A stretch of 64,000 bases of DNA from Lytechinus variegatus (lineage: Eukaryota > Echinodermata > Echinoidea > Temnopleuroida > Toxopneustidae). Of this stretch, positions 34,112-62,916 are shown one piece after another. The notes under the pieces are model-generated. The model was not told the DNA's origin and did not search any database. It saw only the letters and a program-made list of their open reading frames with translations. Numbering within the stretch: position 1 is the stretch's first letter; each line of letters begins with the position of its first letter. The position numbers and the translations under genes are program-made. The DNA lies in contig NC_054758.1 of NCBI RefSeq assembly GCF_018143015.1, positions 6,683,001 to 6,747,000 on the forward strand, in the 5' to 3' direction.

Positions 34112-35335
34112 ATGACGGACTACAACTTTTCAATGTTTGAAAACTTTACTGGTGTTAGCCAAAGCGATTTCTATGAAATTCCACGTTCTGTGCTATGGTA
34201 CGCGACAGTTCCGTTGTTGCTTACCATAATTTCACTTATAACAGTAATCGGAAACGCCTTCGTCATTGCAGCGTTCTTCACGGATAAGAGAATAAGAGAC
34301 AAGCCATCGAATATTCTCATTCTGAATCTCTCATTTACGGATATACTTATCGGATTAATCATTCTGCCAGTTAATATGATATATTCAACCTTGGATGTAT
34401 GGCCCTTTGGTGAAATCGTTTGCAAAGTGTTCTTGGTCTTGGACTACACGCTTTGCATTGTTTCGGTATGGACAGTGGTGTTAATAAGCATGGATAGATA
34501 CTGGTTGGTGAAGAAACAGCTGAAATACGCGAGTTTCCAAACCCATCGTCGCGTAGTCGGATCGCTAGTATGCGTGTGGATTGCGTGCTCAACTTTGTAC
34601 GCATTCGTAGCATTCGGTTGGACCGAAATTGCTAAGGACGTTGCACTTGTTGATTACGCCAAAGACTGCGAACTGCAATTTAGTTATAGTGTTCCGACAA
34701 CACTTTCTGTGAATGCTGTAGAATTTGTTATTCCTTTTGCCATTATAGTTAGCCTTAATGTGGTCCTGTACTTCAACATACGGAAAGGGCCCCAAGGCAT
34801 CGAGAGACGGAGACTGTCAAGAACGAACGGGCAAACGATCCAGTACATCGCGGTTTGTTCGGTGAGGTTACCAAACGATTCTGTCAGGCATCCCCACAGC
34901 ACTGGCACAACCCTGAGGACTTCGGCTTGCGCGACCGAAGAATTCAATACCCCCGATGCCACCGTCACACTGCGTGCGCGCAGTAAGAGAGGTAGATTTA
35001 ACGCCGAGTACAGAAAACAGCTGAACATGCACGCGCAGCACCGGAAAGCTGCGTTCTTCCTTGCCGTTTTCGTCGGAGTGTTCATGTTTTGCTGGCTGCC
35101 GTACCAGTTCACCAGCATCCGGATGGCATTCTGCGGCGAATGTGTTCTGGAGATAACATGGGATCTCACAAATTATCTGCTATGGTGTAACTCTACAATA
35201 AACCCGTTTTTATATGCACTTACGAACCTCAGATTCAGACGGAATTTTCTATATTTATATTATAAATATAATAAACTATGTTGTCCTTGGAAGCGCACAC
35301 TAGAACCCAGTCGACCTGACAGCGAAGGTACCTAG
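34112..35335 (+). CDS. Class A GPCR, biogenic-amine type (histamine H3/muscarinic-like), intronless
   Basis: The 407-residue protein has seven hydrophobic helices and the full set of rhodopsin-family landmarks. These are GN in TM1 (47-48), LNLSFTD in TM2 (D77), Cys104 paired with Cys186, and DRY at 128-130 closing TM3. TM6 has FCWLPY (326-331) and TM7 has NPFLY (364-368). Asp111 in VLDYTLC sits at the position that binds the charged amine in aminergic receptors. The D-Y pair with a following S-V resembles muscarinic and H3 histamine receptors. The third intracellular loop (about 224-310) is basic and shows no conserved motif. N-glycosylation sites occur at N5 and N11. The ORF is continuous from ATG to stop with no intron, common for invertebrate class A receptors. 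The exact ligand cannot be told from sequence. Predicted to act at the plasma membrane through G proteins. Confidence 0.93.
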   Translation: MTDYNFSMFENFTGVSQSDFYEIPRSVLWYATVPLLLTIISLITVIGNAFVIAAFFTDKRIRDKPSNILILNLSFTDILIGLIILPVNMIYSTLDVWPFGEIVCKVFLVLDYTLCIVSVWTVVLISMDRYWLVKKQLKYASFQTHRRVVGSLVCVWIACSTLYAFVAFGWTEIAKDVALVDYAKDCELQFSYSVPTTLSVNAVEFVIPFAIIVSLNVVLYFNIRKGPQGIERRRLSRTNGQTIQYIAVCSVRLPNDSVRHPHSTGTTLRTSACATEEFNTPDATVTLRARSKRGRFNAEYRKQLNMHAQHRKAAFFLAVFVGVFMFCWLPYQFTSIRMAFCGECVLEITWDLTNYLLWCNSTINPFLYALTNLRFRRNFLYLYYKYNKLCCPWKRTLEPSRPDSEGT

Positions 35336-39833: not shown

Positions 39834-40016
39834 TTAGTTATTATTTTCATTGTTATGGGAACCATTGGGCGTGGCAATGGCGGATAGTCTGTTGGTATCG
39901 ACGGTGTTTTGTTTCCTCTTCGAGTCGTCGCTCCGAAACACTTTGAGATTGAACGAACTCCGTCGAGAAAACGAATTCCGCCATTCGACTTTCCTACGCT
40001 TAAAGGTATGGCGTAC
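39834..40016 (-). CDS. Adhesion GPCR exon 16: cytoplasmic tail
   Basis: Encodes residues 948-1007 and the TAA stop at 39,836-39,834. The tail is basic and Ser-rich (HTFKRRKVEWRNSFSRRSSF) and ends TPNGSHNNENNN. RRSS is a plausible basophilic-kinase site by pattern only. Acceptor CCATTAATAG. Confidence 0.88.
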   Translation of the reverse strand, partial: VRHTFKRRKVEWRNSFSRRSSFNLKVFRSDDSKRKQNTVDTNRLSAIATPNGSHNNENNN

Positions 40017-43000
40017 CTATTAATGGCAAAACAGAAACAAGGAAGAAGCAAAGTTAAGAGGAAGACAGAGGTTGTGATACATAAATAGCGACAGAGATAG
40101 AGAATGGCGGGGACATGGAGGACAGTCAATTATAAGTCTAAACGCACTTTTTTCTTGTATTTGACTCTTGTTGAGAAAAAAAAAGATCACTATCGAAATC
40201 GTAACTTTATCGATAGTGATCACAAACATAAGCAATAACTACAATTACTGAGGAATGATTCATGTTATTCATGTCAAACGGGGTTATTTTGTAACAGCTG
40301 CAGTGTACTCTCCGTATTATTGAGGGCAATTAAGGTATTAACGATAAGCAAATATTTGGATACAGTAGACAATATTGACGTAGTCGATTTGAATAATTTG
40401 CATCTTAGCTACCCCCACCTCCCCCCCACACACACACACTCACAAAAGGAAAAGAAGAAAAAGGAGCAGATTTAGTCTGCTACGCAAACCCTTCACTCGA
40501 GTGAGGGATTTGACTGTTTAGTTTATAATGACATGTAAACTGAAATTCTTTGCGCTGAAATGAAAACACCAAGTTTAATAAGTGCTAGTCATGCGTGAAG
40601 ACCCACTTCTTGAACAAAGTTTCGATCAGGGTCTCTGCCTGGAGACTAGATGAGAATAGGGGCAAAGAAAAAAGAAGAAAAGGAACGTGAAATATCAACA
40701 AGGGGAATCCAAACGGAACATACCTCTGAATTTAAGAGACAGTGAAATACGAAAATGAAAAATCCTTGGAGAGAATTGCAGATGAGGAAGAGGTACATAA
40801 AGACGAGCGTTGATTGGTCCTGCCACATTATACCAAATATCCACGTCAAACCCATTACCGGTAGGAGAATCACGCAGGCCTTCACGCCGTGTCTTTAAAA
40901 GTGCAAATATAAAACAATCAAGGATGACTGAACATCAGTAACAATTTTTAGGTGATGATGATTATTAGAAAAATGCATCCTTCCACCACCTTTCACTTTT
41001 TAGTTCTTACTTTACATTTTCTTTTTGAATGCACGTTTTTCTTTATATTGAGTTGCAATATACCACTGTTTTCATTTCATGTGTGCTCTTGTTAACCATA
41101 TTTAAATACTTCTGTGAATGTAAACCTGTGACTGATCACGATTCAGCCGTTTGTCTGCGGACTGCAATAGCAATAAACCGTTTCAATTCAATTCAATTCA
41201 ATAATACATTAAAATATGATTCAGCCAATTAACTCAATGAAATATTGAGTGATAAAATAATTTATACATTTTCTTTATGATATGTATTATATGGACTTTG
41301 AGAGAAAACAGTGAGGTAGACACGTATGTACATGTATATACCTGCCCATGACGCTCTTTTCGAAATGTAAGCGAGAGTGTAGAAGGTTATTATTATTATT
41401 TTTATTATTGCCGTTTCATTATTATTATTAGTATTATTATTATCATTATCATCATTTTTGTTTAAGATCGAACCAACGAAGCAGGGTTGCAGGCGCACTC
41501 TAACACTGAGACCCTACTGCTGTTTGGATGCAATGGACAATTTAAAGGCTCCTGCACTAAAAAAATGCTACTTTATTAGTCAGAGTAACCAATTTCGTCC
41601 GACCGATAAAATGATCAAAGTTCTGGTAGATTTGAAATAACATATTCAGCAACACTTTGGTAAACCTGAAACAAAGACACGTTTACTCACTTTGCCCGGG
41701 TGATCCGGTTATTGACGACCGTAGGTCCACCAGCAAGCTTAATGATCTCGAACACGACTCTTGAAACGAAGTAGACGTTGAGAGCGATGATGGTCAGAAT
41801 CGGGACAACGAAGAACCATATCGAGTCGTCTTCTCTTCTCAAAAAGCATCTGAAAGAATAGAGAATAACATTTTTTTTGCAAACGAAAAGAGAAAAGAAG
41901 AAAACGGTCCGTTTAGTTGAAACCCAATTCGTGAGAATAAGTCTATTTTTCATACTTCTGTTTTTCTGATCGACAACCTAACTTTCCCGGCACCAAAATT
42001 AACACGACATTACATCAGGCATATCATTTTTATTTCACATTTTTGAAATGTCCATATTCAATATTTAAACACGCTATTTGGAAATATTCTCCATATATTT
42101 TGTAAAACTGTAGTCATGTAAGAATTTTTTTAACGTCACTGGCTCATAGCTGACTATGATTTGTTTTAATCATTTTTTTTTGGAAAAAAAAGAAAATGCA
42201 TAGACTTTGGATAATGGTCAAATGTAGGCCGATTGGAATAGGTGCTACGTGTATACTCTGCTTAGTCTATTTAGGCTCTTAGTCTACCGCCCTCTCGTGA
42301 TAAGCAATCGATCTGTAAAACATCATAACCATTACATTCCCGTTTTCGTCATCGCCGTGTGAATGAGAACTGATGTATTTCTTATTGTAAATACATTCCA
42401 ATAATCCAATATTTGTGTTCATACTTACACAGGGTTGTCATGTGTTGTTACGTCATCACCAAGCTTGCATTTATAAAATGCAAGGGTTGCTGACAAAGGA
42501 ATGATCGGGCATACTAGGATGAAGAAAACAGAAGTACATTATGTTAAAGGGGAAATCACCCTGATGGAAAGTTCGGTGACAAAATAGCAACCCCCCCCCA
42601 AAAAAAAAAAACAAGTGGAATGCCTCTGGCCGTCTCACCTGCATCACGCAGTTCAATATAGCAGCAGTGCTGACTTTGAATACTACTCTAACTCGCACAA
42701 GATGTTCAGTGATACATGGTTACTCTTATGTCCACTTTTTATGAACTAGACCAATAAACTAACAGAGATATGATGGTTATTCAACAGATACACCCAATTC
42801 GGCCAAAGTTCATTGACCTTGGTCATGTGACCTGAAACGCGCACAGGATGTTCAGTGATACTTGATTACTCTAATGTCCAAGTTTAACGAACTAGACCAA
42901 TAAACTTTCAAAGTTATGATGGTAATTCAACAGATACCCCCGATTCGGCCAAAGTTCATTGACCTTAAATGACCTTTGACCTTGATCATGTGACCTGAAA

Positions 43001-46000
43001 CTCGAACAGGATGTTCAGTGATACTTGATTACTCTTATGTACAAGTTTCATGAATCAGATCCATAAACTTTCAAAGTTATGATGGTAATTCAACAGATAC
43101 ACCCAATTCGGCCAAAGTTCATTGACCTTTGACCTTGGTCATGTGACCTGAAACGCGCACAGGATGTTCAGTGATACTTGATTACTCTAATGTCCAAGTT
43201 TAATGAACTAGACCAATAAACTTTCAAAGTTATGATGGTAATTCAACAGATACCCCCGATTCGGCCAAAGTTCATTGACCCTAAATGACCTTTGACCTTG
43301 ATCATGTGACCTGAAACTCGAACAGGATGTTCAGTGATACTTGATTACTCTTATGTACAAGTTTCATGAATCAGATCCATAAACTTTCAAAGTTATGATG
43401 GGAATTCAACAGATATCCCCAATTCGGCCAAAGTTCATTGACCCTAAATGACCTTTGACCTTGGTCATGTGACGTGAAACTCATGCAGGATGTTCAGTGA
43501 TACTTGATTAAACTTATGTCCAAGTTTCATGAACTAGGTCCATATATTTTCTAAGTTATGATGACGTTTCAAAAACTTAACCTCAGGTTAAGATTTCGAT
43601 GTTGAATCCTCCAACATGGTCTAAGTTCATTGACCCTAAATGACCTTTGACCTTGGTCATGTGACATGAAACTCTACTAGGATGTTCAGTAATACTTGAT
43701 TAACCTTATGGCCAAGTTTTATTAACTAGGTCCATATACTTTCTAAGTTATGACGTCATTTCAAAAACTTAACCTCAGGTTAAGATTTGATGTTGACGCC
43801 GCCGCCGCCGCCGCCGTCGCCGCCGCCGCCGCCGCCGTCGGAAAAGCGGCGCCTATAGTCTCACTTTGCTTCGCAGGTGAGACGAAAAAATGATCAGGAA
43901 TATCGATGAAGGTTCGAGGAAAATCCATCAAAGATAACAAAAAAAAATATTAGAATTTAAAGTTTTTGACTTGTAACGTCATACGAGCGGCTGCCCCAGA
44001 TGTTATGAAATATAAAATCAATGAATTTCAACTTTTTAATGAATCGTGAATTCAATTATTTTAGCAGGTTTGAATGATTTAATTAATATACCGAAGGCAC
44101 TGTGACAATAAAAACTATCCAATTTCATTGAAAAATACCATAGGATATGTGGGGAAACTGCTCACTCATGATGTCACAAATCAAATAATTAAAATTATAA
44201 TAACTTTTTTATTCGTTTTTTTTCAAACATTCGGCAATATCTTAAATTATTTTCTCCCTATTTTACAATAAATACATTCCTGTCCCCCCATTTTTTGTGA
44301 CACAGTGAGTTACTCTTCGGACCTTAAAGAAAAACGAAACATATTAGGAAATAAATGATACAATAGATGACTGTTTTCGCAAAAAAACCCACAACGTTTT
44401 GTGCAGGTACAGCATTTTCAGTCTGGTCAGAACCTTGTCGGAAGAATATTACCCGACTTAACGCCGTGGGCAAAGCTAAGCTGCATTCTACATCGGAGAT
44501 ACACAGAAAAGGATCATGCAATAGGCGAGAATATGACGGCCTTTTATTTTCATGGATCTCTACTCATCATCACTTCGAACAACTTAGTGCCTATAAAAAA
44601 CGGCAATTATGTGGGGCAACTTATAACTTTGAGCGGAAAGCTAGTTTACGTGAGCCGAATATCTTCCAACCCGATAAACAGTGTCTAGCACTGCGGGGTG
44701 AATGGGGCTAACAAACACGTGCGACGCAAAGCGCCCACAATTTTCCTAACGTAAATAATTGAATTAATAATTGAATTAACAAATATATAAATAGAATAAA
44801 TAACTAAACAAATAAATACATAAATAAATAAAGAGATAAATAAATATGATTGAATCAGTACGTAAGTAAAAGAATAACAAATAAACAAATAAATAAATTA
44901 AAGAAAATACTGAGATGAGAAAGGACGATGGCGTTCCACGTGACTTACGCCAGCCAATCACAAGATATATCTTAATTCTGCTTCCTGGTTTACTGAAGAC
45001 CACAACGGCTTGTAGAAAAAGATTGACGCCCTCTATCAGCATCCAACAAAATGCAGACATGAAGAAGTAGTAGAGCAGAGAAGCTTTGACCGTGCACTGG
45101 ACCTATATGTATCATAAAAATGAAAAAAAAATAAATAAATAAGTAATGGTGATGATGAAAATAATAATACTAATGATGCTAATAATATTATTGGTAATGA
45201 TAAGGACACAATAATGATTACAAATATAAATAATACTAATGATACAATTTAATAATAATAAATACATAATAATAATATAATGATAATGATAATGAATATA
45301 AATAATATAATGATAATAATAAAGTAATGATATATAATAATGATGAATGTATAATGATATAATTGAATAATGAATGTATTGATATATGGATTGATTATTG
45401 TTATTTATGATATAATTAATGTCAATTAGTAATATATTTGATAATAATAGTGATCAATAATAAATGAATTCAAATAAATAATAATTTTGATAATAATAGT
45501 ATCAATAATAAAACATGAAACATTAATGACAATGAAAATGATAAACATAGCGATAATTATATTATTAAAGTTCGCCCTAAATAGATGTTTTTTGTACAAA
45601 TAGCAGAAAAAATATTCAAAGATATTGGTGACGGTGTGAGGAAATCCATCAAAGATTAAAACTGTATTAGAATCTAAAGTTTTTGATTTATTACGTAGTA
45701 GACGAGCAGTTGCCCTGTATGTTATGCAATATAAAATGCACTAATTTCCAATTTCCAATGGTTCGTAATGACTTATTTTTATCAGTTTTAGTAGCAGGGG
45801 TGAAATGATTTGTCTTTTTATATACTAAAGGTTAAAAAAATAATTCTCTGAGAAGTGACATTTCATCGATTCTTTTTCCCATTCGATATTTGGGAAAGCT
45901 CCTCGCATAAGACGTCACATAAAAAATAAGATTATTTTTTTTGTTCTTTCATTTCCACCAAACCTTAACCAATATTTTTAAAACGATTTTGTTGCTATCT

Positions 46001-49000
46001 TCACAGTAACCTTTTTGTCAGTGTGAACTTCCCCTTTCACCCCTTCATTTATCAGAATTCTCTAAGCGCTTTACAGTAATGCAGTATGATTACTCCTCAA
46101 ATTGATTCCGGTAAAATAGAATCAAACAGACCTGATACTTGGTGGGGGTGTCTAAGAACAGGATCATGATCTGACCCAGTCCCACGGCGAGGGCCAAGTT
46201 GATATGGATCATCACTCGGTCTGATTTGAGACTAATAAAGGAAATAAAAAAAAGAGCTATCAGGTTATAGAATGTTAGATAACCCCAAGCATTCGAAATT
46301 CGAGTTCGCTAAACTTTAAAGAGAGTATTGAATACAGTCATGCATCGGAACGTATCGATAAATGTATTTCTGAGGGCTTATATTGTTTTCATTTTTGTAT
46401 TGACGTATCGGAAATTGTATTTATTATGTTCATTTCATTTTTTTTTTCTCATAGCTGCCAAAGTACTTTTTTCGGGAGTAGAGTTTAACCAATTTGCTCA
46501 GTCTTGAGGAGGTCGCATTTTTGTTTTCTTATTCATATTCGTATTTGTAGTCGCCTTCCTCTTAACCCTAAATAGACTGGGCTATTTCGACACCTAAGAA
46601 GACTGGGGGGGGGGGGGGGCTGATTCAGCCCCCCCTTATGATCTCGGCCGTCGATCGCGCGATCGCGACGAAAATTGGCACACATGTTACCCATTGCATT
46701 ATCTAAAAAACTGTAACATCAAATTCTGCAAAAAAAATATCATGTCTCGTTTTAAAAACAAATGTTTTTAAAACGTAATCTTTTAAATAAATCAAGGAAA
46801 TGTTAAAAAAATATGATATTGTTAACAATTTTTCCTCCAAAATTTAATTCTTTGTTAACAAAATATTGATAAACACTTGAAAGAAGACCCTTATTTACCT
46901 AAGGATGATGAATGAGAAGATTGTGAAGAAGGCGCCCGCTATAGACAATCCGCATCCAATTGATGTAATCACGTTTGCTGCGAGTGTATCGGCGGGGGAA
47001 AGCTGCTGACGGTAAAACGGGTGAGGGAATAGTTATTGTATTTGTTGGCAAATTTTGTTTTAAAAATAATCGATACTTTGTATGTTTATGGGTATATTTC
47101 ATGACATGCAAGCAATACTTTACAGAACATCGATTATAATTCATATAAAATTATAGATTAGGCTAAATTAGAGTTTTACATGTATTTCAATACTCTGGTT
47201 GGCCACCTGAGTAACGTCACGTATTATCATGCATCAACATTCTCCATTCTTATTTGAAGGCCACGAAAGATTTCATGTATGACAACTAAATACTTGAAGT
47301 AAAAGTCGAGTATGAAAATACCAATTTCAACGTACTTTATTGCAATGTTGGAAAACGGTTTTTATTCTTGAATGAATGAATTGAACGTGTGTAGATTCAA
47401 TCAGAGGCTGTCGAAGGTGGTTATGGAACATGAAACCCTTTAAACTCCGCATAAGTTTTCATCTACTTTTTAGTCCCCAATATATGTATAAATCTATATA
47501 ATCTCTCTATATAATCCAATATAATATTCAGAAATTGAACACTTCAGCTTAGGTGATATGTTTCATACTTTTGCAAAAGCAACTGGAAAGCACGTTTCAC
47601 CTGTACGTATCTTGGAAAAAAAGGCTGTAAAAACCAGATTGAAAAAAAAACGGAAAAGAGTTCTTACGTGATATTCATTTATTTGCATCAGGACAGCAAA
47701 GTTAGTAAGATGATCGCATGCACACTCGACTACCGACGAGTTGACAAATTCAGGCCAGCATCCTTCTTGAGACCAACCGCTAAAAGAAATGAAAAAAAAT
47801 CATTAATCGTATCGATCATGTGACGTTTTATTCCTTTTTTCCACTTTTCTTGTTTATTGAAATTTAAAGAGTTTCTAATTTTCACAACTTGTAAAATGAT
47901 ACACGTGATCGTGAAGTTTTAATAATTTAAAAACAATTATGGCGTGCACTGAGCAAATAATGAATGACGTAAAACCTGAAAAATTGAGTCGAGATATATT
48001 ATATTACATACCGTGTGTTGCATGCAGATGGATAGAAAGCACAGATAAATAGTACATCTTTGAGTGGTAATGCATTCAGTTCCAACAAAAGTTCATTTCA
48101 AAGTATTATCAAAATTTTCCACGCAAACCTCGCGTCTTCGTCATGGATACAAAACTCACAGTGACAAGATACATGATATAATCACGATTGGTTTGACCAA
48201 ATACCGAAAGTAAGTACGTAAAAATAAGATCGTAGATTTTAACAGGAGCGTAGCTCTCAAAAAGGAAAGGTTAAGTCACACTCTTCGTCAGTGACCATGA
48301 TGTGACCCCCCCCCCCCAAAAAAAAGAAGAGAATTAATACCTTTGTATTTGTTTGAAAATTTATATGCATCCCCTCATGAATATGCAATGAGCAAGCTGA
48401 TTATGTCATATCCCTAATTATGTTGTATATTATTGTATTAAATTATGTGTATTCGATCCATGTCCAGCTGGAGTGAAATGAGATACTGCACGAGATATTA
48501 ATTAATGCAACTTATTTCGTTCAAAAGGGGATCTTTAATACATACATGCATGAAAAAATCAAATAACAAATTGTGATTTCTTGAGAAAAAAAATGAAAGT
48601 ATAGAGACATGACATCAACAGCCAACATAATGAATATTGTCAACGGCATGCATGTACGGTATATGGCACTGTTTTCACAAAAAATTGCTATACTTTAAAA
48701 TTAAATTTGTTATATGTTATCAAAATTTGAAAAAAAATACGTTTTACTCGGCGAATTTTACTCCTTATATTTATATATACATGATAAATTCAGCCCCGCG
48801 TTTTATGAAGGTTTTCTGAATAGGGGTCTTCTGACACATGCAAATTAACTAAAACAAATGCTGGTTATCAATTAACCAATCATAACAAGTGAACATGATC
48901 ATGTATCGGGTAACACTTTTCACACTTCACGGCAAGCACCGCATGACGGAATGATCAGTCCCCTATGTAAGTCTAGGACTCGATGCGTTCCTCGTCAAAA

Positions 49001-52000
49001 TCAGATGTCAATAAACATAGGGGTCTAAGAATAATCAGAGTACTAGAGTTCGTAAGCCGATGTGACACTGTCAAATAAAATTTCAAGAACAAGTCAGCGG
49101 GGTTCTCACCTTCTCCCAACGAATTTATTATTATGAAGAATATCACACTTACCGTAGGGTGTGATTCCAGAACGAACAGAGGGCAAGACCGTCGGCAAAG
49201 CGTGGTGGCTGTTGCCATGGTAACATGATCGTATTACCGAAGAGGAAAGAGTAAAAGAGGTAAATAGCAGATGTGAGACAATTGGAATAAAACCATGAGT
49301 GGAATATCATTGAGAACATGATGATAAATATTATGTTGAAAAATTTAGGCCTATAATTTGTGAGGTGAGGGCGGCCACTGCGTGTGTGTGGGAATGAGGG
49401 TGCACTCGCGCGTGTAATGCGTGTTATATGTATCGGAGTGTGTGCATGTATGATTGTTAGTCAGTATATGCATGCCTGAAGAATATATCAAATACGAAAA
49501 GAGGATAATTGGGTGAGATAGAGTGAGACAACAATTTGGAAATCAAGACAAAATATGAAATATTTTCGAAAACCACGATTTGTGAATTTACTTTGTATAT
49601 AGGCCCAACACATACACGTTAATAATGAGAATCGATTTTTAGGTCGCCTGTCCTTGTTTTTTTTTCGTTGTTGTTGCTGCTGTTGTTTTCTGAAACGTTT
49701 ACATGAATAAAATCCGAAGTTGCATTTAATATTATAGCTATACTGGTTGACAAAAATGCTAGACTTTCGTATTATTACCATAATTGTAGTTTCACATACG
49801 ACAGGGAAGACTTCGTAGTTCCTTAGTGGCAATTTTACAATGCAATCAAACCTTTGTGTTTCGACAGGCATGCACTTATTGGATGTCGTCAGCAAAGTAC
49901 ACTAACTTTCGATTCGTGACTCGACTCTTAAAATAGCAAGTTAAGTTTTAAAGGATAGCTGCACCAATGAAATCATGTTTATGTAAGACATAGAGCATAG
50001 AGTCAAACACTTAGAACTCGATGGTTCCCAAATGAAAAGAGTGAGGATATTCATTTTGGCAACAAGATGACGAAAATTCAAAGAGTTTCATTTGTGGTAT
50101 TGAAGTAGAATATTCCTTACATATTTATATGATGAATAAACCATTCATCATTAACATTTACCAAGTAACATGCAATGGAATATATAATAATGTATGGTCA
50201 GTGTATTATTTGGTCATTATTACCTTTGCCTTTGCCCCAAAGACCCTTTAGGGCCAATAACTTTAGAACATCGTATAAAAATCAATGGGCACTTGTATAT
50301 TTGTACAGCGTATAAGAAATTGATTAAATCATACTTTTTTTTTATTTCTTAGCGGTGAAAAAAGTCAATATATTCAGATAATGCAGGTGATGCACACAGG
50401 TCGCGATAAAAGGTAGCGCTCTCAATGAGTATAGAGGCAATGTTTTTTTTTCTATTTTGTTGTTGGATTTTGCTTTGGGGTTGTTTGTTTTGCTTTGTTG
50501 TTAGTTTGCTTAAGATCTCTCATTAAACATGTTTCTACTCAAGCTTCTATGTTGTACACATTTTAAAAACTGCGGTGTTAAAACTGACACCAGTTGGTGT
50601 TAATAGAGGACCACACCCTGATGTGTTAAAATTACACCCTAGAGATTAAACATAACACCAAAGAGTGTAAATGTAACAACACAAGGTGTTGTAATAACAC
50701 CTACAGGTGTAAAACTAACACCACCAATTTAACACCGGTGTAAAATAACTGGTGTGGTTCTCTATGTACACCGGTTAACACCACAGTTTTTGCTGTGCAT
50801 ATATGTATAATACATATACTCTGGCTGAAAGAAGGTGAGTTTCTAAATGTAAAATTTAAAAATGCAAATTTGATATTTGGGAATATGACAGCAAACCAGG
50901 TATCAAAATTCTGCTTTCTTTATATAAAAGATTGATGGTCGATTTTGCTATATTTAGCGTGGACACATCAGAATAGTGCGTCAATGGCATGTGACAAGGA
51001 GATATTCCTGTTTACACTGTCCAACGGGGATTTTGCACGTGACCTAGAAATATGTGTATGTGACCTGTCTGACCACGATGTAAGGTATACTCTCCTTTCT
51101 AAACATCGTCTGCAAATATTTTTTTTCTCTGACAATTGAATTTAGCCATCGTCACATGCGAATGGTATTCCGCAAAGAAGTCTTGACTAGAGTACAAGTT
51201 GCTTCCTGCCGACAATAATCCGAAACCGGGACCTGCTCGGTTAATGGCTTGTCAAAACTTGTTACTCTACAAACTAGCAGAAGCCGACAACATTCGTGGA
51301 CAAACACCTTCTCATAGCCATGATAAAAATGAGAGCAATGCATACGTGTTTTTTATTGTATCAACATGATCATGGTGACAAGTAACGAGTTGTTTGAAGA
51401 GGTGACGGTGTAAGGGGAAAATGGAAAACGGAGAATTGTCATTTTTTACCCATTCTACTTCAAACGGGGAGGGGGAGAGTAACACAGGATGTCCACACCA
51501 ATTTCAACCAGTGCACCATTTGAATCTGTGATTCACACTTTTAAAATGCTCTAAAATGCTCAAATTGAACCGTGTGAAGATGATTTCGTTATATGCTTCA
51601 CATTGAGGAAAAACCTGTGTACCACATTGTTTTTTCTAGTTTTAAGTTATGGACAGAAACCAGGTGTAGCGATTGACGTGTAAGATGTTTAAAGAGAGGG
51701 AAAGTAACTCTGAATTAGATGCCTACATATCGATAGGGGAAATGAGATTTCTTTGTGAGTTTATTGCATTAGTGTGTTTCTCAGATAAGTTTACATTTGG
51801 TTTTAAGAAATATTTCAATAGAGTTTCAATGGAATGTTATTCTATATATAGCACAACAATAAAAATCACAATAATAAACAACTTAAATTGTGCAGAAATT
51901 GTAATAATAATAATCTCTACTTAGTTTTGCAAATGCAAAGTGAACATTTTGTGTGTGTGTGTGTTGCTCGACCCATTTTTATTTTTTAAAGTTTATTGAT

Positions 52001-53968
52001 GTACACTGTTAGATGAAAAAAAACAGAGTTTACATAGAGAAAAAAAAAACTAACCATTCTGTAAATTGTTATAACAGGAACAATACTGTACATTTTTTCT
52101 ACAATTTTACAGAACAGGTCTGTTTAAAAAAAGGGGAAAGTAGTTATATTACAATACATTTGCAAGGTCACACACGCCAAATACAAATTTTCTGTAATTT
52201 AACACAAATGCATGTGAGTGCAGTAAGATTGCTAGTGTTCTCGAGATTCTGCTGCAGGAATATCTGTCCTTTTTAAGTAGCAATTTTCTAACAGTTTATT
52301 TGACAGGTGAAATAATACTCTCTAAATGCAAAGAGCTATTCCGGTCCCAAATTATTCTCCTCTCTGAGTATGTTTTTAGACATTTTCACTCCAGAAGAAG
52401 CTGTAATGCACTCTCAAGAGATGTAAATCCCACTCCAGAACGACTGGTCCCTCGTCTCAATCTACATGATCTAAGCATGCTAAGAAGAGTGTGATATGGA
52501 ACCAGATTGGCTCTTTTGCATTTGGCATGTAGCATTACTCATTTAGCACGAATTGTGTAATAATTTATACAATATTTACCATCTTTTGCATAGGAAACAC
52601 CATACCGACAGGGGAGGGAAGTTTTAGTTCTGAGGCCACGGAGGGGTATAGGCTTAGGCTAAGAACCTGGCTGCCGACCATCTCCCGAGCACCAGATGGG
52701 TCCAATGCCCTAGATATGAGGAAAAGAAAATGATAATGGACTCGAAAGAGGTACTCGATTGGCGATCGACCCAATATAAATTTGATGGCTTTTCCCCTGA
52801 AAAATATCGCATATTGTTTTAAAAAGAGAAGAAAAAAAAAACTTCTAGTGGACAGCTCGTATAAATTGTCACAAAAATATAGATCATCATTTCCCAAATT
52901 CCATATAACAAATGGGAGTTTATTCCAAATCAACAGAGAAGATCAGGAAATGATATAAAATCAAACTGCCTACTTCTGTCCTCCATCCCACCCCTTCTCC
53001 TTCCCGAAGTTTGGAATTTCGCTAGAATAACAAATAAATTGAAAAAAGATCTCTTTGTTTCATACAGAATGCAATGAGAGACAAATGAAAAAAAAAACGA
53101 TCAAGATCTTGATCAAATCAATAAAAAACTTCAGTTCGTCTCTTTAAAAAGAAGTTGATAGTTTAGAAATTCGAAGCAAAAGAATCATGGCAGAGAGTAT
53201 AGCTCTGACATGAGAAGAAAAACATTATATAGGTTACATAAGGGTGGAAGGAGATTGTACAACTTACTCGGAATCATTAGAAGTCGAACAATTATCGATT
53301 CTTTCCCCGAGATTCCGAAAAACAATTGATATTATTGCCTGGGTTTCCAGTTCTCGAAGAATCCCCATGCTTATTAGACCCCTCGTCTTCGGCTGGGTCG
53401 AGTTGGCGTTGCTTGGTATCGAAATTACTGTAGATGGATCGACACCGGACGAGTTGATCCTTTTGATTTCTATCACTGTTGCACAAACGAAAAAAAAAAC
53501 ACGCTATCACTGAGGCCCCTTATTAATGATATTCTGAAACATGTTTACTTAATCAACAGATAGATACATACATACAAGCATAATCTATTCCTGTTAATGT
53601 AATGTTCAAGGTAACTTTCAGATATTATTTCCCTTTCCGTTAGACATCATTTAGCTCAAGAGTCTGTTCCCTTTAATTATTATCAAGTCTTTCCTTACGT
53701 TTTTTTTCATTGTTACGCTATTGTTTTCTTTTGTTACCGTTGCATGCTTGCTTAGATTGTGTTTTTGTTGCATGCCATCCTTATTTTCGTTTTTATTTGT
53801 TCTGTCCCTCAAACCCTGAGGAGGACCATTTACACATGTCGAAAGATTGCATTAGAGTTGGAAAAAATAATGTTACGTCCCGGAGCCTCTTTCTTTCAAA
53901 GTCACGCACACACACACCCCACACACCCACACGTGTGTGTAGAGTGTGGGTGTATGAGGGAGGGGGCA

Positions 53969-54012
<44 letters not shown>

Positions 54013-60000: not shown

Positions 60001-62916
60001 GCAGTACAGAGTTAGTAATAGTATAACTGTCATTACAGCAATTTCTGCTATTATCATATCATTATTATTATTACTATAGATATTATTATTATTAATATCA
60101 TTATCATTAATATTATTATCATTGGTATTATCACTACTATTACTCCTATCATATCATTACTGTAACCCTACTTAACATTATTACCATTATCATATCAAAA
60201 ACTTTTATCGAAGTAAGGATCTTTTGCAAAAGATGAGAGACGAATTCTTCTGATGGAGATAGTACTGCCTTGAATTTAAACATATTGATAATCTGACTTT
60301 GCATTCGTTTTTTTATTTGCCTCTCGTTTTTCAGTTCATGAAAATACAAGGTCATGATTTTTAGCCTGGTGGGTGTTTCATAAAGTTGTTCGTATTGACT
60401 ATAAGAACGACAGGTGATCCTTTCTTGTGGTAAATGGTATAGTCATTGGCGATGGGTTAGCACGTAATAAAGGATCACCAGTCGCTCTTAAAGTTGTTCT
60501 TAACTTATGAACAGCTTTGTGAAACAGCCCCCTGGACTGAAACAACTGTTTAACATTTAAGCAAAACTCAACATTCAAGACGAAATACTGCTTTTATAAA
60601 TTGCATCAGCAGATTATGCTGCCAAGAACCTTGCCAACTTTAGATTATACACAAAGTGTATTTATTTCATTTTTAGAGGAAGAATAAGAAGAGTGACATC
60701 TTGTTTGAATACCTATTGAACTCCAGAATATCTCAATTATACAACCGTTGTATCCTAAAGCGTGCAATTTTGATATCGAAGATTGAAAACCTACCTGTGG
60801 CGGGCAGGCATGTTGGGTATTTTGCAGGCACATCCAATGCAGCTTCCATGGCATACGCATTCGAACCATTTTTACCCATTTTCCAAGAATATAGTGCAAC
60901 TTGAAAAGAGGCCTCTGGGTTCTTGTGTGACACGCAGTGCAGACCCGGCTCAAGTTCGTAAGAGAGGGCGCAATAGGTCGTTCCATTTACCATTGATATT
61001 ACACGGCTATCTTTCAGTTCACTTCCATTTACCAGGAACCCTTGGATATCCCTGCAATTTATGATGACATCCACGATGTTTTCGTTCTCGAAGGGAAGCA
61101 CATCAACGAGAAGATTTTGCTTAGATTCGTTTAGAGGAGGAACGTTAAACATACTTGGATCGCTTCGGATGTTCTTAGCATTACTCTCATTGGAACCAAT
61201 CATATATTTCACGATTGAAATGGACTCATTTGCAGTAATCTCAATAACCTGATCGAACGCTCTTTGGTCATCAAATGATGAATGTTGACCATGAACTGTG
61301 AACCAATTTGCCCAGTCAAGACCACTAACCGAAACGTTTGCGACTGCTCCTTCCGGTGCAAAAATCTTGAGTAGGTAGTTGAACCTGTCGATTCTGGCGA
61401 AAGGCGCAACAGCAAAGTGGTTTCCCCAAAACCTTTGTGGAACCATTTGCTCCATGATATATCCCCCTGTCCCCTTCTCGAAAAAGCTAGTCATCCCACC
61501 TGCAATGACGGACACATTCTTCTCAGATTTCACAAATGTTCCTGTCAGGTCCACCTTCTTGCCTTTACAGAACATTGATTCAAACCTCCGCAACACAACA
61601 GAAGCGTTGTCAGTGCTAGTTCTTTCTAATGGATCACATTTAAATTGATTCCCCCATGGGTTGTAGATATGAATAGAGTTATTATCTTCTAAGGACGTTA
61701 TAGTAAAAAGAGTGAGTTTGTTTTCATTATGCGCTATGACATGGCGGGTCCCTGTGGATTCTGATGGTATGACATGGAAGGCAGCAACTGGCCGAAGGAA
61801 CTCCAAGTACGCTACGACACCAATCCTTCTTGTAGAATTGACAATTACGGTGGCGTTTTTGTAGTCGGGAAGTTGATGGGTCCCAAGGCTCAGATTCACC
61901 CGTTCTACATGCCCTGGTGGTAGAATAAACGTTCTCTCGAAATTTGTTCTGGGAATGGCTACATGAATTGATGAATTCTTGAGATCCCCGGAGATAACAT
62001 CAATCACACAGGGTTTATTCTCTTTTTGCCTGGATTTGCGGTCTGCCAGGAAGCTGAAGGCGAAGAGCTTACCCCCGTAATTTGGTCCTATTTCAGCTCC
62101 AACTAAACAGAGTAGGCATACACAAAGGACCTGTAGGGCAATTAAGAGAAGACAAAGACACAATTGAGCATTGTATTACAGCGAACACTGATGATCCTAC
62201 TTTCTTAACAAAACTAGTCAATTTTCAAAACAATAATAATGAAGATTACACTGTTTCAAGTAGTATTGTGTCATACCCATAACATTGTGTATGTCTCATG
62301 TATTTGTTCCTACTAGCTAAATTGGGCATTTACGATGATAATTTTCTGTATAATTGACAACTCAACTAACTACTTGAAAACACGGAGGGAACGTATATTG
62401 AGATGAGCTAGTGAGGTTGCTCTATATTCTGTATTCTTCCCCTCTATACACACCGTTGTCAGGATTGTTAGAAGCAGAAACAATACATTATATTTTACAA
62501 CGCTATATGAAATAGCCATCCTGGACAAACTGGACGCACAAATCTGAACGAAGCCTACATGTACGCTGTTAATTCTTGAGTGTTTAAACTAACTCCAGTC
62601 CTAGAGATTAGATATAACTTTCAGTGTCAAGTATAAACGTAATAAACATTCATGTTTTCTGGAAGCCAAACATGTCAACATATTTCACGTTCATTGTATG
62701 TTATGTTTACTGAGCTATTTTCCTAATTCTTTAGTGGTGTAGACATTGTGAGTGCTAAATTACCACTTAATTTTTTACGGCGTAACTCTCTCTATTTCTT
62801 GTCCTCTTTGTGAAGCATAGCTTGATTCAGATAAATAGATCAAGCATAGATGGGAATAAAATATAGCCTATCCTTACCAGTGTGAAGGAAACGACAAAAT
62901 GTAAAAGCTTTTCCAT
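39834..62916 (-). CDS. Adhesion GPCR with IgGFc-binding ectodomain (16 coding exons, 1,007 aa)
   Basis: The exons run from 62,916 down to 39,834; every junction is GT-AG and all phases close, giving 3,024 nt including the stop. Order of parts: signal peptide 1-25; IgGFc-binding-type N-terminal domain about 26-440 with many N-glycosylation sites; short Cys-containing linker; GAIN domain about 480-685 with GPS; seven helices about 697-941; basic Ser-rich tail 948-1007. The GPS keeps C645, W648, W655, C660, C672, C674 and the H676-L677/T678 cleavage triplet, so self-cleavage is predicted and the tethered agonist would begin TNFAVLM. TM6 has LLPVMGLTWIFG, typical of adhesion GPCRs; C761 and C839 form the expected loop disulfide. 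Known family role: cell-surface receptor sensing matrix or cell contacts. IgGFc-binding-type domains occur in mucus and matrix proteins, so such a partner is plausible but inferred. The start lies in a strong Kozak context (CACCATGG). Confidence 0.93.
40017..40723 (-). other. Intron 15 with a 12-bp perfect hairpin
   Basis: GATCACTATCGA at 40,185-40,196 and its complement TCGATAGTGATC at 40,210-40,221 form a 12-bp stem with a 13-nt loop. A CA-rich patch lies at about 40,418-40,440, and TCACTCGAGTGA at about 40,494-40,505 is a short palindrome. No coding sequence. Confidence 0.7.
40724..40892 (-). CDS. Adhesion GPCR exon 15: TM6 and TM7
   Basis: Encodes residues 891-947. TM6 contains LLPVMGLTWIFG and TM7 contains LICNSLQGFFIFVFHC, both signatures of adhesion GPCRs. 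Ends LLNSE in phase 0 with donor GTATGT. Confidence 0.95.
40893..41690 (-). repeat. Intron 14 with (TTCAA)n and (ATT)n tracts
   Basis: ATAAACCGTTTCAATTCAAT at about 41,170 leads into a TTCAA run, which looks like the tail of an old retroposon. A run of ATT units lies at about 41,388-41,455. No exon is seen in this intron. Confidence 0.6.
41691..41849 (-). CDS. Adhesion GPCR exon 14: second loop cysteine and TM5
   Basis: Encodes residues 838-890. VCFL supplies C839, the partner of C761. TM5 includes IWFFVVPILTIIALNVYFV. The exon ends in the third intracellular loop (NNRITRA). Acceptor CTTTCAG, donor GTGAGT, phase 2 exit. Confidence 0.95.
42429..42513 (-). CDS. Adhesion GPCR exon 13: TM4 and second extracellular loop
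   Basis: The short 85-nt exon encodes residues 810-837, LCPIIPLSATLAF then a charged loop (KCKLGDDVTTHDNP). It was placed because exon 12 exits in phase 1 and exon 14 enters in phase 2, and this exon bridges them with good splice sites (CATCCTAG, GTAAGT). Confidence 0.88.
42540..44300. mobile_element. ~520-bp MITE-like family, copy 2, split by a later insertion
   Basis: The left part (42,540-42,610, TTAAAGGGGAAATCACCCTG) and the right part (43,885-44,300, with ATGATGTCACAAATCAAATA) are the two halves of the family seen whole at 2,050-2,571. They are separated by the tandem-repeat element at 42,611-43,884. The right terminus is eroded. It lies in intron 12 of the adhesion GPCR. Confidence 0.7.
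42611..43884. mobile_element. Composite element: ~160-bp tandem units, GCC run, short inverted ends
   Basis: The ends carry CGTCTCACCTGC (42,631) and its complement GCAGGTGAGACG (ending 43,884). Between them a unit containing GGATGTTCAGTGATACTTGA and AAAGTTCATTGACC is repeated about seven times. The marker positions are near 42,700, 42,846, 43,009, 43,160, 43,323, 43,489 and 43,681. A GCC trinucleotide run follows at about 43,797-43,840. It is non-coding. The combination of tandem core, microsatellite and conserved ends suggests a non-autonomous mobile element; the class is not certain. Confidence 0.75.
44301..44948. other. Intron 12 remainder
   Basis: Two overlapping plus-strand frames (44,367-44,711 and 44,401-44,688) have no recognisable domain and are opposite to the host gene. 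I do not call them. An AAATAAAT-rich patch lies at about 44,760-44,910. Confidence 0.45.
44949..45102 (-). CDS. Adhesion GPCR exon 12: TM3 and start of TM4
   Basis: Encodes residues 759-809. It contains C761 (extracellular disulfide), SAFCWMLIEGVNLF in TM3, and KIYLVIGW opening TM4, all diagnostic for this class. Acceptor ACATATAG, donor GTAAGT, phase 1 exit. Confidence 0.95.
45103..45562. repeat. Intron 11 AT-rich trinucleotide tract
   Basis: About 430 bp consist of degenerate AAT, ATA and TGA units (AATAATAATACTAATGATG type). Low-complexity sequence with no coding content. Confidence 0.8.
45563..46040. mobile_element. ~520-bp MITE-like family, copy 3
   Basis: The ends TTAAAGTTCGCCCT and GTGTGAACTTCCCCTTT are inverted counterparts. 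Internal blocks such as CATCAAAGATTAAAA, TGAAATGATTTGTCTTTTTA and GACGTCACATAAAA match copies 1 and 2 in order. It lies in intron 11 of the adhesion GPCR. Confidence 0.72.
46132..46231 (-). CDS. Adhesion GPCR exon 11: TM2
   Basis: Encodes residues 725-758 with the TM2 core VMIHINLALAVGLGQIMILF. The donor is GTCTGT, weaker than the others in this gene; the phase 0 exit nevertheless fits the next exon exactly. Confidence 0.92.
46560..46700. repeat. Intron 10 repeat with G-run/C-run hairpin and CG palindrome
   Basis: CCCTAAATAGACTGGGC leads to a run of about 16 G, then CTGATTCAG, then CCCCCC, which can pair back. It is followed by GATCTCGGCCGTCGAT and the perfect 14-bp palindrome CGATCGCGCGATCG. 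The sharp structure and higher GC content than the intron suggest an inserted repeat; the full ends are not defined. Confidence 0.6.
46899..47002 (-). CDS. Adhesion GPCR exon 10: TM1
   Basis: Encodes residues 691-724. The helix runs from about 698 to 724 and includes ITSIGCGLSIAGAFFTIFSF, typical of adhesion-GPCR TM1. The acceptor could be used three bases upstream (CAGCAG), adding one Gln. Donor GTAAAT, phase 2 exit. Confidence 0.93.
47668..47779 (-). CDS. Adhesion GPCR exon 9: GPS cleavage site and tethered agonist
   Basis: Encodes residues 653-690. GWSQEGCWPEF and VECACDHLTNF give W655, C660, C672, C674 and the cleavage triplet H676-L677-T678. The released agonist would start TNFAVLMQINEYH. 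All key residues for self-cleavage are present. Acceptor TTCTTTTAG, donor GTAAGA, phase 0 exit. Confidence 0.95.
47780..49152. mobile_element. Intron 8 with second MITE-like family, copy 3 (about 48,335-48,665)
   Basis: Blocks CATGAATATGCAATGAGCAA, GATTATGTCATATCCCTAAT, TGCAACTTATTTCGTT and ATAATGAATATTGTC follow the order seen in the copies at 5,437 and 35,976. Ends are eroded. The rest of the intron shows no exon or further repeat. Confidence 0.5.
49153..49208 (-). CDS. Adhesion GPCR exon 8: first half of GPS
   Basis: The 56-nt exon encodes residues 635-652 and ends in phase 2. It contains LCSFWNHTL, the first GPS cysteine (C645) and tryptophan (W648). Acceptor GGCAACAG, donor GTAAGT. Confidence 0.92.
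49209..52579. other. Intron 7 (3.4 kb)
   Basis: Apart from the inverted-repeat element at 50,563-50,792, this intron holds only AT-rich sequence and a short poly-CAG/GTT patch near 49,662-49,685. A 135-codon minus-strand frame there (49,488-49,895) owes its length partly to that patch, has no recognisable domain and is not called. Confidence 0.5.
50563..50792. mobile_element. MITE-like element rich in GGTGT/ACACC motifs
   Basis: The left end AAAAACTGCGGTGTTAA and the complement of the right end (GCAAAAACTGTGGTGTTAAC) match. GGTGT and ACACC recur about twenty times inside in both orientations (for example ACACCAGTTGGTGT and ACACCGGTGT), so the element can fold in many registers. It is non-coding and lies in intron 7 of the adhesion GPCR. 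Confidence 0.75.
52580..52709 (-). CDS. Adhesion GPCR exon 7: GAIN domain, VLSLSL strand
   Basis: Encodes residues 591-634, including SQVLSLSLYPSVASELK and the PVGMVF strand, which are hallmark GAIN segments just before the GPS. Acceptor ATATCTAG, donor GTAAAT, phase 0 exit. Confidence 0.92.
53268..53475 (-). CDS. Adhesion GPCR exon 6: GAIN domain, central part
   Basis: Encodes residues 522-590. It contains VIEIKRINSSG, then GLISMGILRELE and AIISIVFRNLG, which are the expected beta-strand blocks of the GAIN sandwich. N-glycosylation sites occur near N546 and N583. Acceptor GCAACAG, donor GTAAGT, phase 2 exit. Confidence 0.92.
53969..54010. repeat. (GT)n microsatellite
   Basis: A GT dinucleotide run of about 40 bp in intron 5 of the adhesion GPCR, just left of a MITE copy. 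Shorter CA-rich sequence lies at about 53,905-53,930. Confidence 0.92.
54060..54362. mobile_element. ~310-bp MITE family, copy 2 (intron 5)
   Basis: The ends GGCCCGTATTCTGAAGTC and GACTTCAGAATACGGGCC are perfect inverted repeats over 18 bp and imperfect further in. ATT flanks both sides and could be a 3-bp target duplication. It aligns along its whole length with 30,845-31,156. Confidence 0.87.
54363..55631. other. Remainder of intron 5
   Basis: AT-rich intronic sequence with T runs at about 55,120-55,175. No exon, gene or repeat family recognised. Confidence 0.5.
55632..55746 (-). CDS. Adhesion GPCR exon 5: start of GAIN domain
   Basis: Encodes residues 484-521, including NRPANIAMEMEHLAVELAAK, an amphipathic helix typical of the helical half of GAIN. 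Acceptor TTGTATAG, donor GTGAGA, phase 1 exit. Confidence 0.9.
55908..56124. mobile_element. MITE with TTAA flanks (intron 4)
   Basis: The ends share CACACCGCCCGAGCGTTG and then TTGGAGCGGTCGTGGAGC in inverted orientation, about 44 bp per arm. TTAA lies immediately outside on both sides (55,904-55,907 and 56,125-56,128). TTAA target duplication is typical of the piggyBac superfamily, so a piggyBac-type MITE is likely. The interior is T-rich and non-coding. Confidence 0.82.
56299..56352 (-). CDS. Adhesion GPCR exon 4: linker before GAIN domain
   Basis: The 54-nt exon has phase 0 at both ends and encodes residues 466-483, FQKRLAGLQDEDYCGNNT. Because it is symmetric it could be skipped without shifting the frame. 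Acceptor AATACAG, donor GTAAGT. Confidence 0.83.
57174..57390. mobile_element. hAT-like MITE with perfect 8-bp target duplication (intron 3)
   Basis: The ends CATTGGCGGCGGAAGC and GCTTCCGCCGCCAATG are perfect 16-bp inverted repeats. GAACTCTG flanks both sides exactly (57,166-57,173 and 57,391-57,398). An 8-bp duplication is the hallmark of hAT elements. The interior contains repeated blocks of CCCCCCTAAATTTG and GACCTTTTTTTT. Non-coding. Confidence 0.88.
57859..57878 (-). CDS. Adhesion GPCR exon 3: 20-nt microexon
   Basis: Acceptor CTCACAG and donor GTAAAG enclose just 20 nt. They convert the phase 1 exit of exon 2 to phase 0 and add residues 459-465, ESSPDIQ. The next exon requires phase 0, so the frame only closes with this exon included. 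Confidence 0.78.
57879..59708. other. Intron 2, left part
   Basis: No exon or repeat family recognised in about 1.8 kb of AT-rich sequence. An 84-codon plus-strand frame (58,241-58,495) has no recognisable domain. Confidence 0.5.
59709..59780. repeat. (AGT/AGC)n microsatellite
   Basis: A degenerate trinucleotide run (GTAGTAGCAGCAGCAGTAG type) into which the neighbouring TA-flanked element appears to have inserted: the run resumes as GCAGTACAG on its far side. Confidence 0.85.
59781..59998. mobile_element. Tc1/mariner-like MITE with TA flanks (intron 2)
   Basis: The ends CACTCTTAAAACAAATCAGT and the complement of ACCGATTTGTTTTTAGAGTG match as inverted repeats with few differences. TA lies on each side (59,779-59,780 and 59,999-60,000), as expected for Tc1/mariner insertion. 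The interior has several TGACTAGAA motifs. Non-coding. Confidence 0.82.
60055..60160. repeat. (ATT)n-type low-complexity tract
   Basis: TATTATTATTACTATAG and similar ATT/ATC units continue for about 100 bp in intron 2. Confidence 0.8.
60367..60533. mobile_element. Short MITE, GGGTGTTTCAyAAAG ends (intron 2)
   Basis: The left end TGGTGGGTGTTTCATAAAGT and the right end (complement AGGGGGCTGTTTCACAAAGC) are inverted copies continuing to GTTC. The interior also has inverted GGATCACC/GGTGATCC blocks. At 167 bp it is non-coding. The terminal GTTTCAyAAAG resembles the element at 1,405. Confidence 0.72.
60795..62130 (-). CDS. Adhesion GPCR exon 2: IgGFc-binding-type domain
   Basis: This large exon of 1,336 nt (residues 14-458 plus one base) encodes almost the whole ectodomain. 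It begins VLCVCLLCLVGA, completing the signal peptide, then IGPNYGGKLFAFSFL. The family pattern includes RRIGVVAYLEFLRPVAAFHV, a C-rich turn (MFCKGKK) and about a dozen N-x-S/T sites. Acceptor TTGCCCTACAG, donor GTAGGT, phase 1 exit. Confidence 0.9.
62131..62877. other. Intron 1 of the adhesion GPCR
   Basis: AT-rich intronic sequence without a recognised repeat or exon. Confidence 0.6.
62878..62916 (-). CDS. Adhesion GPCR exon 1: signal peptide, first half
   Basis: This exon encodes residues 1-13, MEKLLHFVVSFTL, and ends in phase 0 at a GTAAGG donor. Joined to exon 2 it gives one continuous hydrophobic core, which is why I chose this ATG rather than an in-frame TTG next to exon 2. The intron splits the signal peptide. 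Confidence 0.88.

What the first reader, a model, noticed from the sequence alone, without database searches (positions are those of the whole stretch)
39834..62916. Adhesion GPCR whose ectodomain is an IgGFc-binding-type domain
Sixteen exons with matching phases join an IgGFc-binding-type region (known from secreted mucus and matrix proteins such as FCGBP) to a GAIN/GPS and a seven-helix adhesion-GPCR core. I do not recall this architecture among the standard vertebrate adhesion-GPCR subfamilies. It suggests a receptor lineage particular to some invertebrate deuterostomes, perhaps sensing mucus or a matrix partner. Domain naming is by pattern recognition and the function is inference.
Basis: partly seen in the sequence, partly recalled or inferred. 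Interest (0 to 1): 0.8.

Follow-up and report, generated by a model that had tools for sequence, protein, structure and literature searches.

The report
Adhesion receptor with mucus-protein ectodomain
A gene in what is probably a sea urchin genome most likely joins the head domain of the mucus protein FCGBP to an adhesion G-protein-coupled receptor, and diverged relatives with the same layout in the same genome suggest a small receptor family that could sense mucus or matrix; transcripts and function remain untested.

Summary
On the minus strand of 39834-62916, 13 exons join in phase (945 aa) and score as IgGFc_binding (98.3 bits), GPS (44.1 bits, cleavage triad H-L-T present) and a full 7tm_2 core (145.8 bits). 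Chance adjacency is unlikely: of 37 IgGFc and 69 GPS matches scored, six pairs lie within 20 kb, all in receptor order and strand, 0.03 expected by a uniform model (two of the six are probably allelic copies). Two paralogues on the same contig have a strong phase-1 donor at the IgGFc exit, like the window, and one adds a SUEL lectin. The core is nearest ADGRD1 among solved structures. Most likely a self-cleaved, tethered-agonist receptor whose ectodomain grips mucus- or matrix-like ligands; cleavage, agonism and ligand are inference. New variant of a known kind. No transcript and no other animal genome could be tested.

The parts
62878..62916 (-). exon 1: start codon and first half of the signal peptide (MEKLLHFVVSFTL), phase out 0
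   Evidence: donor ACTG|gtaagga scores 6.9; joined with exon 2 it gives a signal-peptide-like start (by inspection). The chainer kept this donor but began further upstream at all three settings, so the start is my choice
60795..62130 (-). exon 2: rest of the signal peptide and the whole IgGFc_binding (FCGBP head-type) domain, phase 0 to 1
   Evidence: PF17517 101.7 bits in the genome scan, 98.3 bits in the joined protein; acceptor 7.2, donor 7.7; chosen by the chainer at all three settings
53268..53475 (-). exon 3 of the supported chain: start of GAIN subdomain B, phase 1 to 2
   Evidence: second-best distinct candidate in 52500-60900; phases as the matching exon of paralogue C; domain named by inspection, no profile match
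52580..52709 (-). exon 4: GAIN subdomain B strands, phase 2 to 0
   Evidence: best-scoring candidate in 52500-60900; phases as in paralogue C; weak tblastn to C's exon, E 0.92
49153..49208 (-). exon 5: upstream part of the GPS region (LCSFWNHTL), phase 0 to 2
   Evidence: 53-base exons with the same phases in B and C; best tblastn hit of C's exon, E 0.04; weak acceptor, 2.2
47668..47779 (-). exon 6: GPS motif with cleavage triad HL|T and tethered agonist TNFAVLM, phase 2 to 0
   Evidence: PF01825 40.8 bits genome scan, 44.1 bits joined
46899..47005 (-). exon 7: TM1, phase 0 to 2
   Evidence: inside the 7tm_2 match of the joined protein; tblastn to A, its copy A' and C
46132..46231 (-). exon 8: TM2, phase 2 to 0
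   Evidence: inside the 7tm_2 match; tblastn to B and C
44949..45102 (-). exon 9: TM3 and start of TM4, phase 0 to 1
   Evidence: inside the 7tm_2 match; tblastn to A, A', B, C and E
42429..42513 (-). exon 10: TM4 and second extracellular loop, phase 1 to 2
   Evidence: open frame with the needed phases between exons 9 and 11; acceptor 5.3, donor 3.5. The strictest chainer run used an acceptor 24 bases further in; this one is my choice
41691..41849 (-). exon 11: TM5, phase 2 to 2
   Evidence: tblastn to B and C; inside the 7tm_2 match
40724..40892 (-). exon 12: TM6-TM7, phase 2 to 0
   Evidence: 7tm_2 match in the genome scan; 54% identity with paralogue C; weak acceptor, 2.3
39834..40016 (-). 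exon 13: cytoplasmic tail and stop codon
   Evidence: resembles the tail exon of paralogue C (VRHTFKRR / VRHAVKRR; 44% over 25 residues, E 0.002). The stricter chainer runs reached the same stop from an acceptor at 39993; 40016 is my choice

Best explanation
The locus encodes one adhesion GPCR (class B2): signal peptide, one complete FCGBP-head-type IgGFc_binding domain carried on a single exon, a GAIN-B-like/GPS module, seven helices nearest ADGRD1 and ADGRL3 among solved chains, and a short tail. Expected working: the GAIN module cuts itself at HL|T, the two fragments stay together, the IgGFc domain holds a ligand fixed in mucus, egg jelly, cuticle or matrix, and pull or displacement exposes the tethered agonist TNFAVLM, which enters the seven-helix bundle and activates a G protein. 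Shown here: the IgGFc, GPS and 7TM domains, their order, a phase-compatible exon chain and the recurrence of the layout in paralogues. Inferred from adhesion-GPCR biology: cleavage, tethered agonism and force sensing. Inferred only from what FCGBP does: the kind of ligand.
For: Pfam scores far above cut-off on the joined protein. Within 20 kb, six IgGFc-GPS pairs of six are in the receptor order and strand, 0.03 expected (inputs, which are lower bounds). Hand-joined exon translations of paralogues A, B, C and D give IgGFc, GPS and 7tm_2 in the same order (D's 7tm_2 is weak, 46.2 bits). A strong phase-1 donor at the IgGFc exit in window, B and C (7.7, 7.9, 8.0). Around the cleavage site the sequence aligns with ADGRD1 (CTHLTNFAILMQ against CDHLTNFAVLMQ). 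No Pfam domain above its cut-off in ten of the larger open frames that I chose between exons 2 and 3.
Against: No transcript, no protein, no orthologue from another species. Widening the distance adds mixed pairs: within 60 kb seven in receptor order and two not, within 120 kb nine and two. The intron after exon 2 would be 7.3 kb, without the GAIN-A exons that B and C have. The GAIN profile from B and C also failed to find the window's own GAIN-B exons, so GAIN is named by inspection. For C the chainer ran the IgGFc exon on past the donor named above, to 22365, same phase. Exon 2 can be read on for 20 codons to a stop, with AATAAA about 70 bases later; such hexamers occur 2.6 times per kb here. 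The nearest TM6-TM7 exon elsewhere in the genome (C17) has no significant IgGFc match upstream. A single-sequence fold of exon 2 was unusable (mean pLDDT 32.6).
Confidence: 0.83

Rival explanations
1. Two neighbouring genes: a small secreted IgGFc protein (exons 1-2, ending by read-through) and a separate adhesion GPCR downstream.
For: Read-through of exon 2 meets a stop after 20 codons and an AATAAA about 70 bases on; the gap to the next supported exon is 7.3 kb and no GAIN-A exons were seen in it.
Against: The same two parts stand in the same order and strand at four further loci plus one near-identical copy, with no other arrangement within 20 kb; phase-1 donors at the IgGFc exit in window, B and C; phases of exon 2 and exon 3 match. 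An alternative first exon for the receptor was not sought systematically.
Confidence: 0.08
2. One gene with two products: the full receptor and a soluble IgGFc decoy made by intron retention and early polyadenylation after exon 2.
For: Same read-through stop and AATAAA; paralogue C has such hexamers 162 and 195 bases after its read-through stop.
Against: Hexamer density of 2.6 per kb makes this likely by chance; B has none within 300 bases.
Confidence: 0.12
3. A decaying paralogue: GAIN-A exons lost, leaving a receptor that cannot fold or cleave.
For: GAIN-A not found although the chainer picked out such exons in B and C.
Against: The GAIN profile also missed the window's GAIN-B exons, so the absence may be divergence; the exons used are open and in phase with a complete 7tm_2 core and an HL|T site; subdomain A naturally varies, two to six helices in the D and G subfamilies (PMC11697300, passages).
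Confidence: 0.06

Closest known systems
ADGRD1 (GPR133), vertebrate adhesion GPCR
   Same: closest solved chain for the GPS-7TM part, 186.6 bits; near-identical tethered agonist; tail starts alike after TM7 (LLNSEVR)
   Different: ADGRD1 carries a pentraxin-like ectodomain (recalled); here it is IgGFc_binding. The TM5-TM7 tree leaves ADGRD1, the window receptor and others in an open fork
FCGBP (IgGFc-binding protein), head domain
   Same: PF17517 domain; the FCGBP H domain is 450 residues (PMC9354016, passage), exon 2 encodes 445
   Different: FCGBP goes on with vWD-C8-TIL repeats and is secreted mucus; no such repeat was found in the joined protein, which goes on to a 7TM core
Paralogue C (C19:21.54-21.57 Mb, same genome)
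   Same: IgGFc, GPS and 7tm_2 in the same order; same exon phases from GAIN-B to TM7
   Different: a SUEL lectin in front (62.9 bits; 69.6 bits in the genome scan) and recognisable GAIN-A exons
Paralogues A (C1) and D (C14), same genome
   Same: IgGFc, GPS, 7tm_2 in the same order
   Different: different exon layout of the 7TM part, a piece resembling GPR128_N between IgGFc and GAIN (14.9 and 24.1 bits, both under Pfam's cut-off of 27.2), and a separate branch in both trees
Sponge receptor repertoire of Halichondria panicea
   Same: a figure of immune receptors including GPS-bearing GPCRs lists IgGFc-binding among the domains drawn (PMC8242945, legend)
   Different: the text does not say which receptor carries it; the figure is not held

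Membership tests
Adhesion GPCR (class B2) | 7tm_2 seven-helix core | tested here: met
   145.8 bits, profile 3-250 of 250
Adhesion GPCR (class B2) | GPS with H-X-S/T cleavage triad next to TM1 | tested here: met
   PF01825 44.1 bits, cut-off 22.5; sequence CACDHLTNFAVLM
Adhesion GPCR (class B2) | GAIN domain, subdomain B and helical subdomain A | tested here: inconclusive
   subdomain B-like exons in phase, named by inspection; subdomain A not found; the profile used missed the B exons too; Pfam named no GAIN domain in any of the five proteins scanned
Adhesion GPCR (class B2) | self-cleavage and tethered agonism | not testable with these tools
   needs cells
IgGFc_binding domain (PF17517) | profile match over the curated cut-off | tested here: met
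   101.7 bits, 98.3 bits, cut-off 25.6
FCGBP protein | vWD-C8-TIL repeats after the head domain | tested here: not met
   no such domain in the joined protein
ADGRD subfamily | 7TM core grouping with ADGRD | tested here: inconclusive
   best solved hit ADGRD1 186.6 bits, ADGRL3 175.6; tree fork open
ADGRD subfamily | pentraxin/laminin-G-like ectodomain (recalled) | tested here: not met
   no such Pfam match in the joined protein; none of the 17 Laminin_G_3 matches in the genome is on contig C19; the Pentaxin family itself was not searched genome-wide

The most novel reading that the evidence does not exclude
Echinoderms hold a family of mucus- or matrix-gripping adhesion GPCRs built by shuffling the FCGBP head domain as a one-exon module onto at least two different receptor cores, one of them perhaps working with a GAIN domain reduced to subdomain B.
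Probability: 0.25. Interest if true: 0.6.

Novelty: new variant of a known kind. Interest (0 to 1): 0.45.

Why it matters
The head domain of FCGBP is poorly understood: no solved chain resembles this copy by sequence at E up to 1, and even its tie to mucin is disputed (PMC9354016, passage). A copy set on a receptor gives a handle on what it binds, because the receptor's own signal could report it. It would also add an ectodomain type to adhesion GPCRs, and its presence in two receptor branches of one genome makes the question of domain shuffling testable.

Tried and rejected
Chance adjacency: unlikely from order and strand counts within 20 kb; the expectation of 0.03 assumes uniform, independent placement, the matches are lower bounds, three of the 37 IgGFc rows are neighbouring pieces on C11, and B and C may be one tandem duplication. 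Locus E (C11: IgGFc at 1.041 Mb, GPS at 1.095 Mb, 54 kb apart): fibronectin-III-like, sushi-like and single-TM-like exons lie between (by inspection), so it is not counted as a receptor of this layout. Pentraxin replaced by IgGFc: no Laminin_G_3 match lies beside the receptors discussed; not decidable without other genomes. One origin or several: in the tree of 14 IgGFc domains the receptor label needs three changes, with the window on a long branch flagged as unsure; in the tree of 12 TM5-TM7 pieces (five IgGFc receptors, locus E, four nearest genome hits without IgGFc, two human pieces; several rows half empty) a single group is neither shown nor rejected, 67/80. Structure: exon 2 alone folded at mean pLDDT 32.6, so no fold search was made. 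Pfam scan of ten chosen open frames between exons 2 and 3: nothing above cut-off, one frame with two sub-threshold matches. Print: in searches I saw no paper described as showing this pairing, but I judged most by title and abstract. Listed were 20 of 49, 4 of 4, 15 of 126, 15 of 118, 8 of 8, 12 of 1,957 and 8 of 82; of the 12 papers I opened two (PMC8242945, PMC6092800), passages or a section only. A 2014 paper compares the full sea urchin receptor set; in the passages seen (PMC4302439) most sea urchin adhesion receptors cluster apart from human ones and their N-terminal domains are not given. In the 2026 adhesion-GPCR review only the passages were seen, and the held text is cut at 300,000 characters.

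Full report
What is there. The window is C19:6683001-6747000 of an 869.6 Mb assembly in 33 contigs. Size and contig number fit the sea urchin Lytechinus variegatus; this is recalled, and the genome paper I asked for is not held. On the minus strand PF17517 matches 60889-61782 at 101.7 bits, GPS 47689-47781 at 40.8 bits and 7tm_2 40754-40894 at 31.1 bits. A simple exon chainer of my own (codon scores plus generic splice-site matrices, with a bonus for seven known stretches) followed by hand choices gives 13 exons from ATG 62916 to stop 39834, all in phase, 945 aa. The hand choices are the start of exon 1, the acceptors of the TM4 and tail exons, and the dropping of small extra exons that the chainer added at all three settings. 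The joined protein scores IgGFc_binding 98.3, GPS 44.1 and 7tm_2 145.8 bits, the last over the whole profile.

Sixteen exons and 1,007 residues are not reproduced. Candidates between 60795 and 53475 are short with little coding signal; one of them, 57859-57878, has good splice scores, so a tiny exon there is possible. In paralogues B and C the chainer picks out GAIN-A exons of about 200, 75 and 121 bases. A profile made from the GAIN regions of B and C finds nothing significant in 47600-60800. That negative is weak: the same profile also missed the exons I call GAIN-B in the window. Phases allow exon 2 to join 53475 directly, and loss of the linker and GAIN-A block (phase 1 in, 1 out in C) would keep the frame. 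Subdomain A is lost, or too diverged to see. Subdomain A is known to vary from two to six helices in the D and G subfamilies (PMC11697300, passages).

Is the join real? Three tests. First, order: of 37 IgGFc and 69 GPS matches scored in the genome (lower bounds), six pairs lie within 20 kb, all with IgGFc upstream on the same strand, none in another arrangement; 0.03 are expected if placed uniformly. Within 60 kb there are seven in this order and two not; within 120 kb nine and two. The six are the window, B and C on C19, D on C14, and A with a near copy 5.7 Mb away on C1. The two C1 copies share blocks of 4.1, 2.7, 2.3 and 2.2 kb at 96-98% identity, with a repeat array between that is less alike, and look like an uncollapsed haplotype, so five distinct loci remain; B and C lie 54 kb apart and may be one tandem duplication. 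Second, splicing: at the IgGFc exit window, B and C each have a strong donor in phase 1 (7.7, 7.9, 8.0), although their IgGFc domains are only 23-27% identical to the window's; for C the chainer itself ran on to a later donor of the same phase. Third, hand-joined translations of the paralogues show the same domain order: C with an extra SUEL lectin, A and D with a GPR128_N-like piece below cut-off. Against: exon 2 can also be read on to a stop at 60733 with AATAAA about 70 bases on; hexamers of this kind occur 2.6 times per kb here.

What kind of receptor. The GPS-7TM part is nearest ADGRD1 among solved chains (186.6 bits), then ADGRL3 (175.6). The HL|T site and tethered agonist are present. 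Within the genome the nearest TM6-TM7 exon outside the window is on C17 (53% identity), then paralogue C (49%), a C15 gene (44%) and B (39%). The C17 gene has no significant IgGFc match: none near it in the genome scan and none in the 9.7 kb upstream of its GPS that I fetched. So the pairing is patchy within this receptor group. In a tree of 14 IgGFc domains (window, A, B, C, D, E and the eight best genome hits) A and D group with E and C11:23.87 at 100/99, B and C pair at 100/99, and the window joins B and C at 83/89 on a long branch flagged as unsure. In a TM5-TM7 tree of 12 rows A, D and E stand apart (99/98); whether the pairing arose once or more is open.

How it probably works. From the literature: cleavage at the GPS leaves two fragments associated, and the new N-terminus of the 7TM part is a tethered agonist (PMC12488864, passages). 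The FCGBP head domain is 450 residues (PMC9354016, passage) and exon 2 codes for 445, so one complete head domain appears to sit on one exon. FCGBP is a mucus protein described with MUC2 and trefoil factors (PMC9354016, abstract, passages, which also report that a covalent MUC2 link was not confirmed), and limpet adhesive proteins resemble IgGFc-binding protein among others (PMC7333891, passages). From this I infer a receptor held by a mucus, jelly or matrix ligand. The ligand is a guess; an immunoglobulin is unlikely in an animal that, as far as I recall, has no IgG.

Verdict. A well-supported gene architecture, a new variant of a known kind, with recurrence in the genome as its main strength and lack of transcripts and of other species as its main weakness.

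Noticed in passing
window 34112-35332 (+): A single-exon rhodopsin-class GPCR (7tm_1, 174.1 bits) lies 4.5 kb from the end of the adhesion receptor; it looks like an amine-type receptor by inspection.
   Followed up: partly
window 15434-30058: Several arrays of a degenerate 27-base tandem repeat (unit like GCCCCCTAGTTCGAACATCAATTTGGC) spread over about 14.6 kb, with C over G skew near -0.3 from 16 to 28 kb.
   Followed up: partly
window 42690-43796: Tandem repeat with 163-, 192- and 316-base periods in the intron before the TM4 exon; related pieces occur near paralogues B and C.
   Followed up: no
G000 C1 58.7-62.7 and 64.2-68.3 Mb, also C4 and C12: Family matches come in pairs of equal or near-equal score, at a roughly steady offset on C1 and in opposite orientation on C4, as if haplotypes were left uncollapsed in the assembly (one pair compared).
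   Followed up: partly
L022, L028-L031, L023-L024 (C11:1036001-1102000): An IgGFc gene with fibronectin-III-like exons, then sushi-like exons and a single-TM-like exon, then an adhesion GPCR 54 kb away: one giant receptor or several genes.
   Followed up: partly
window 2696-3826 (-): A 377-residue open frame without any Pfam match above cut-off.
   Followed up: no
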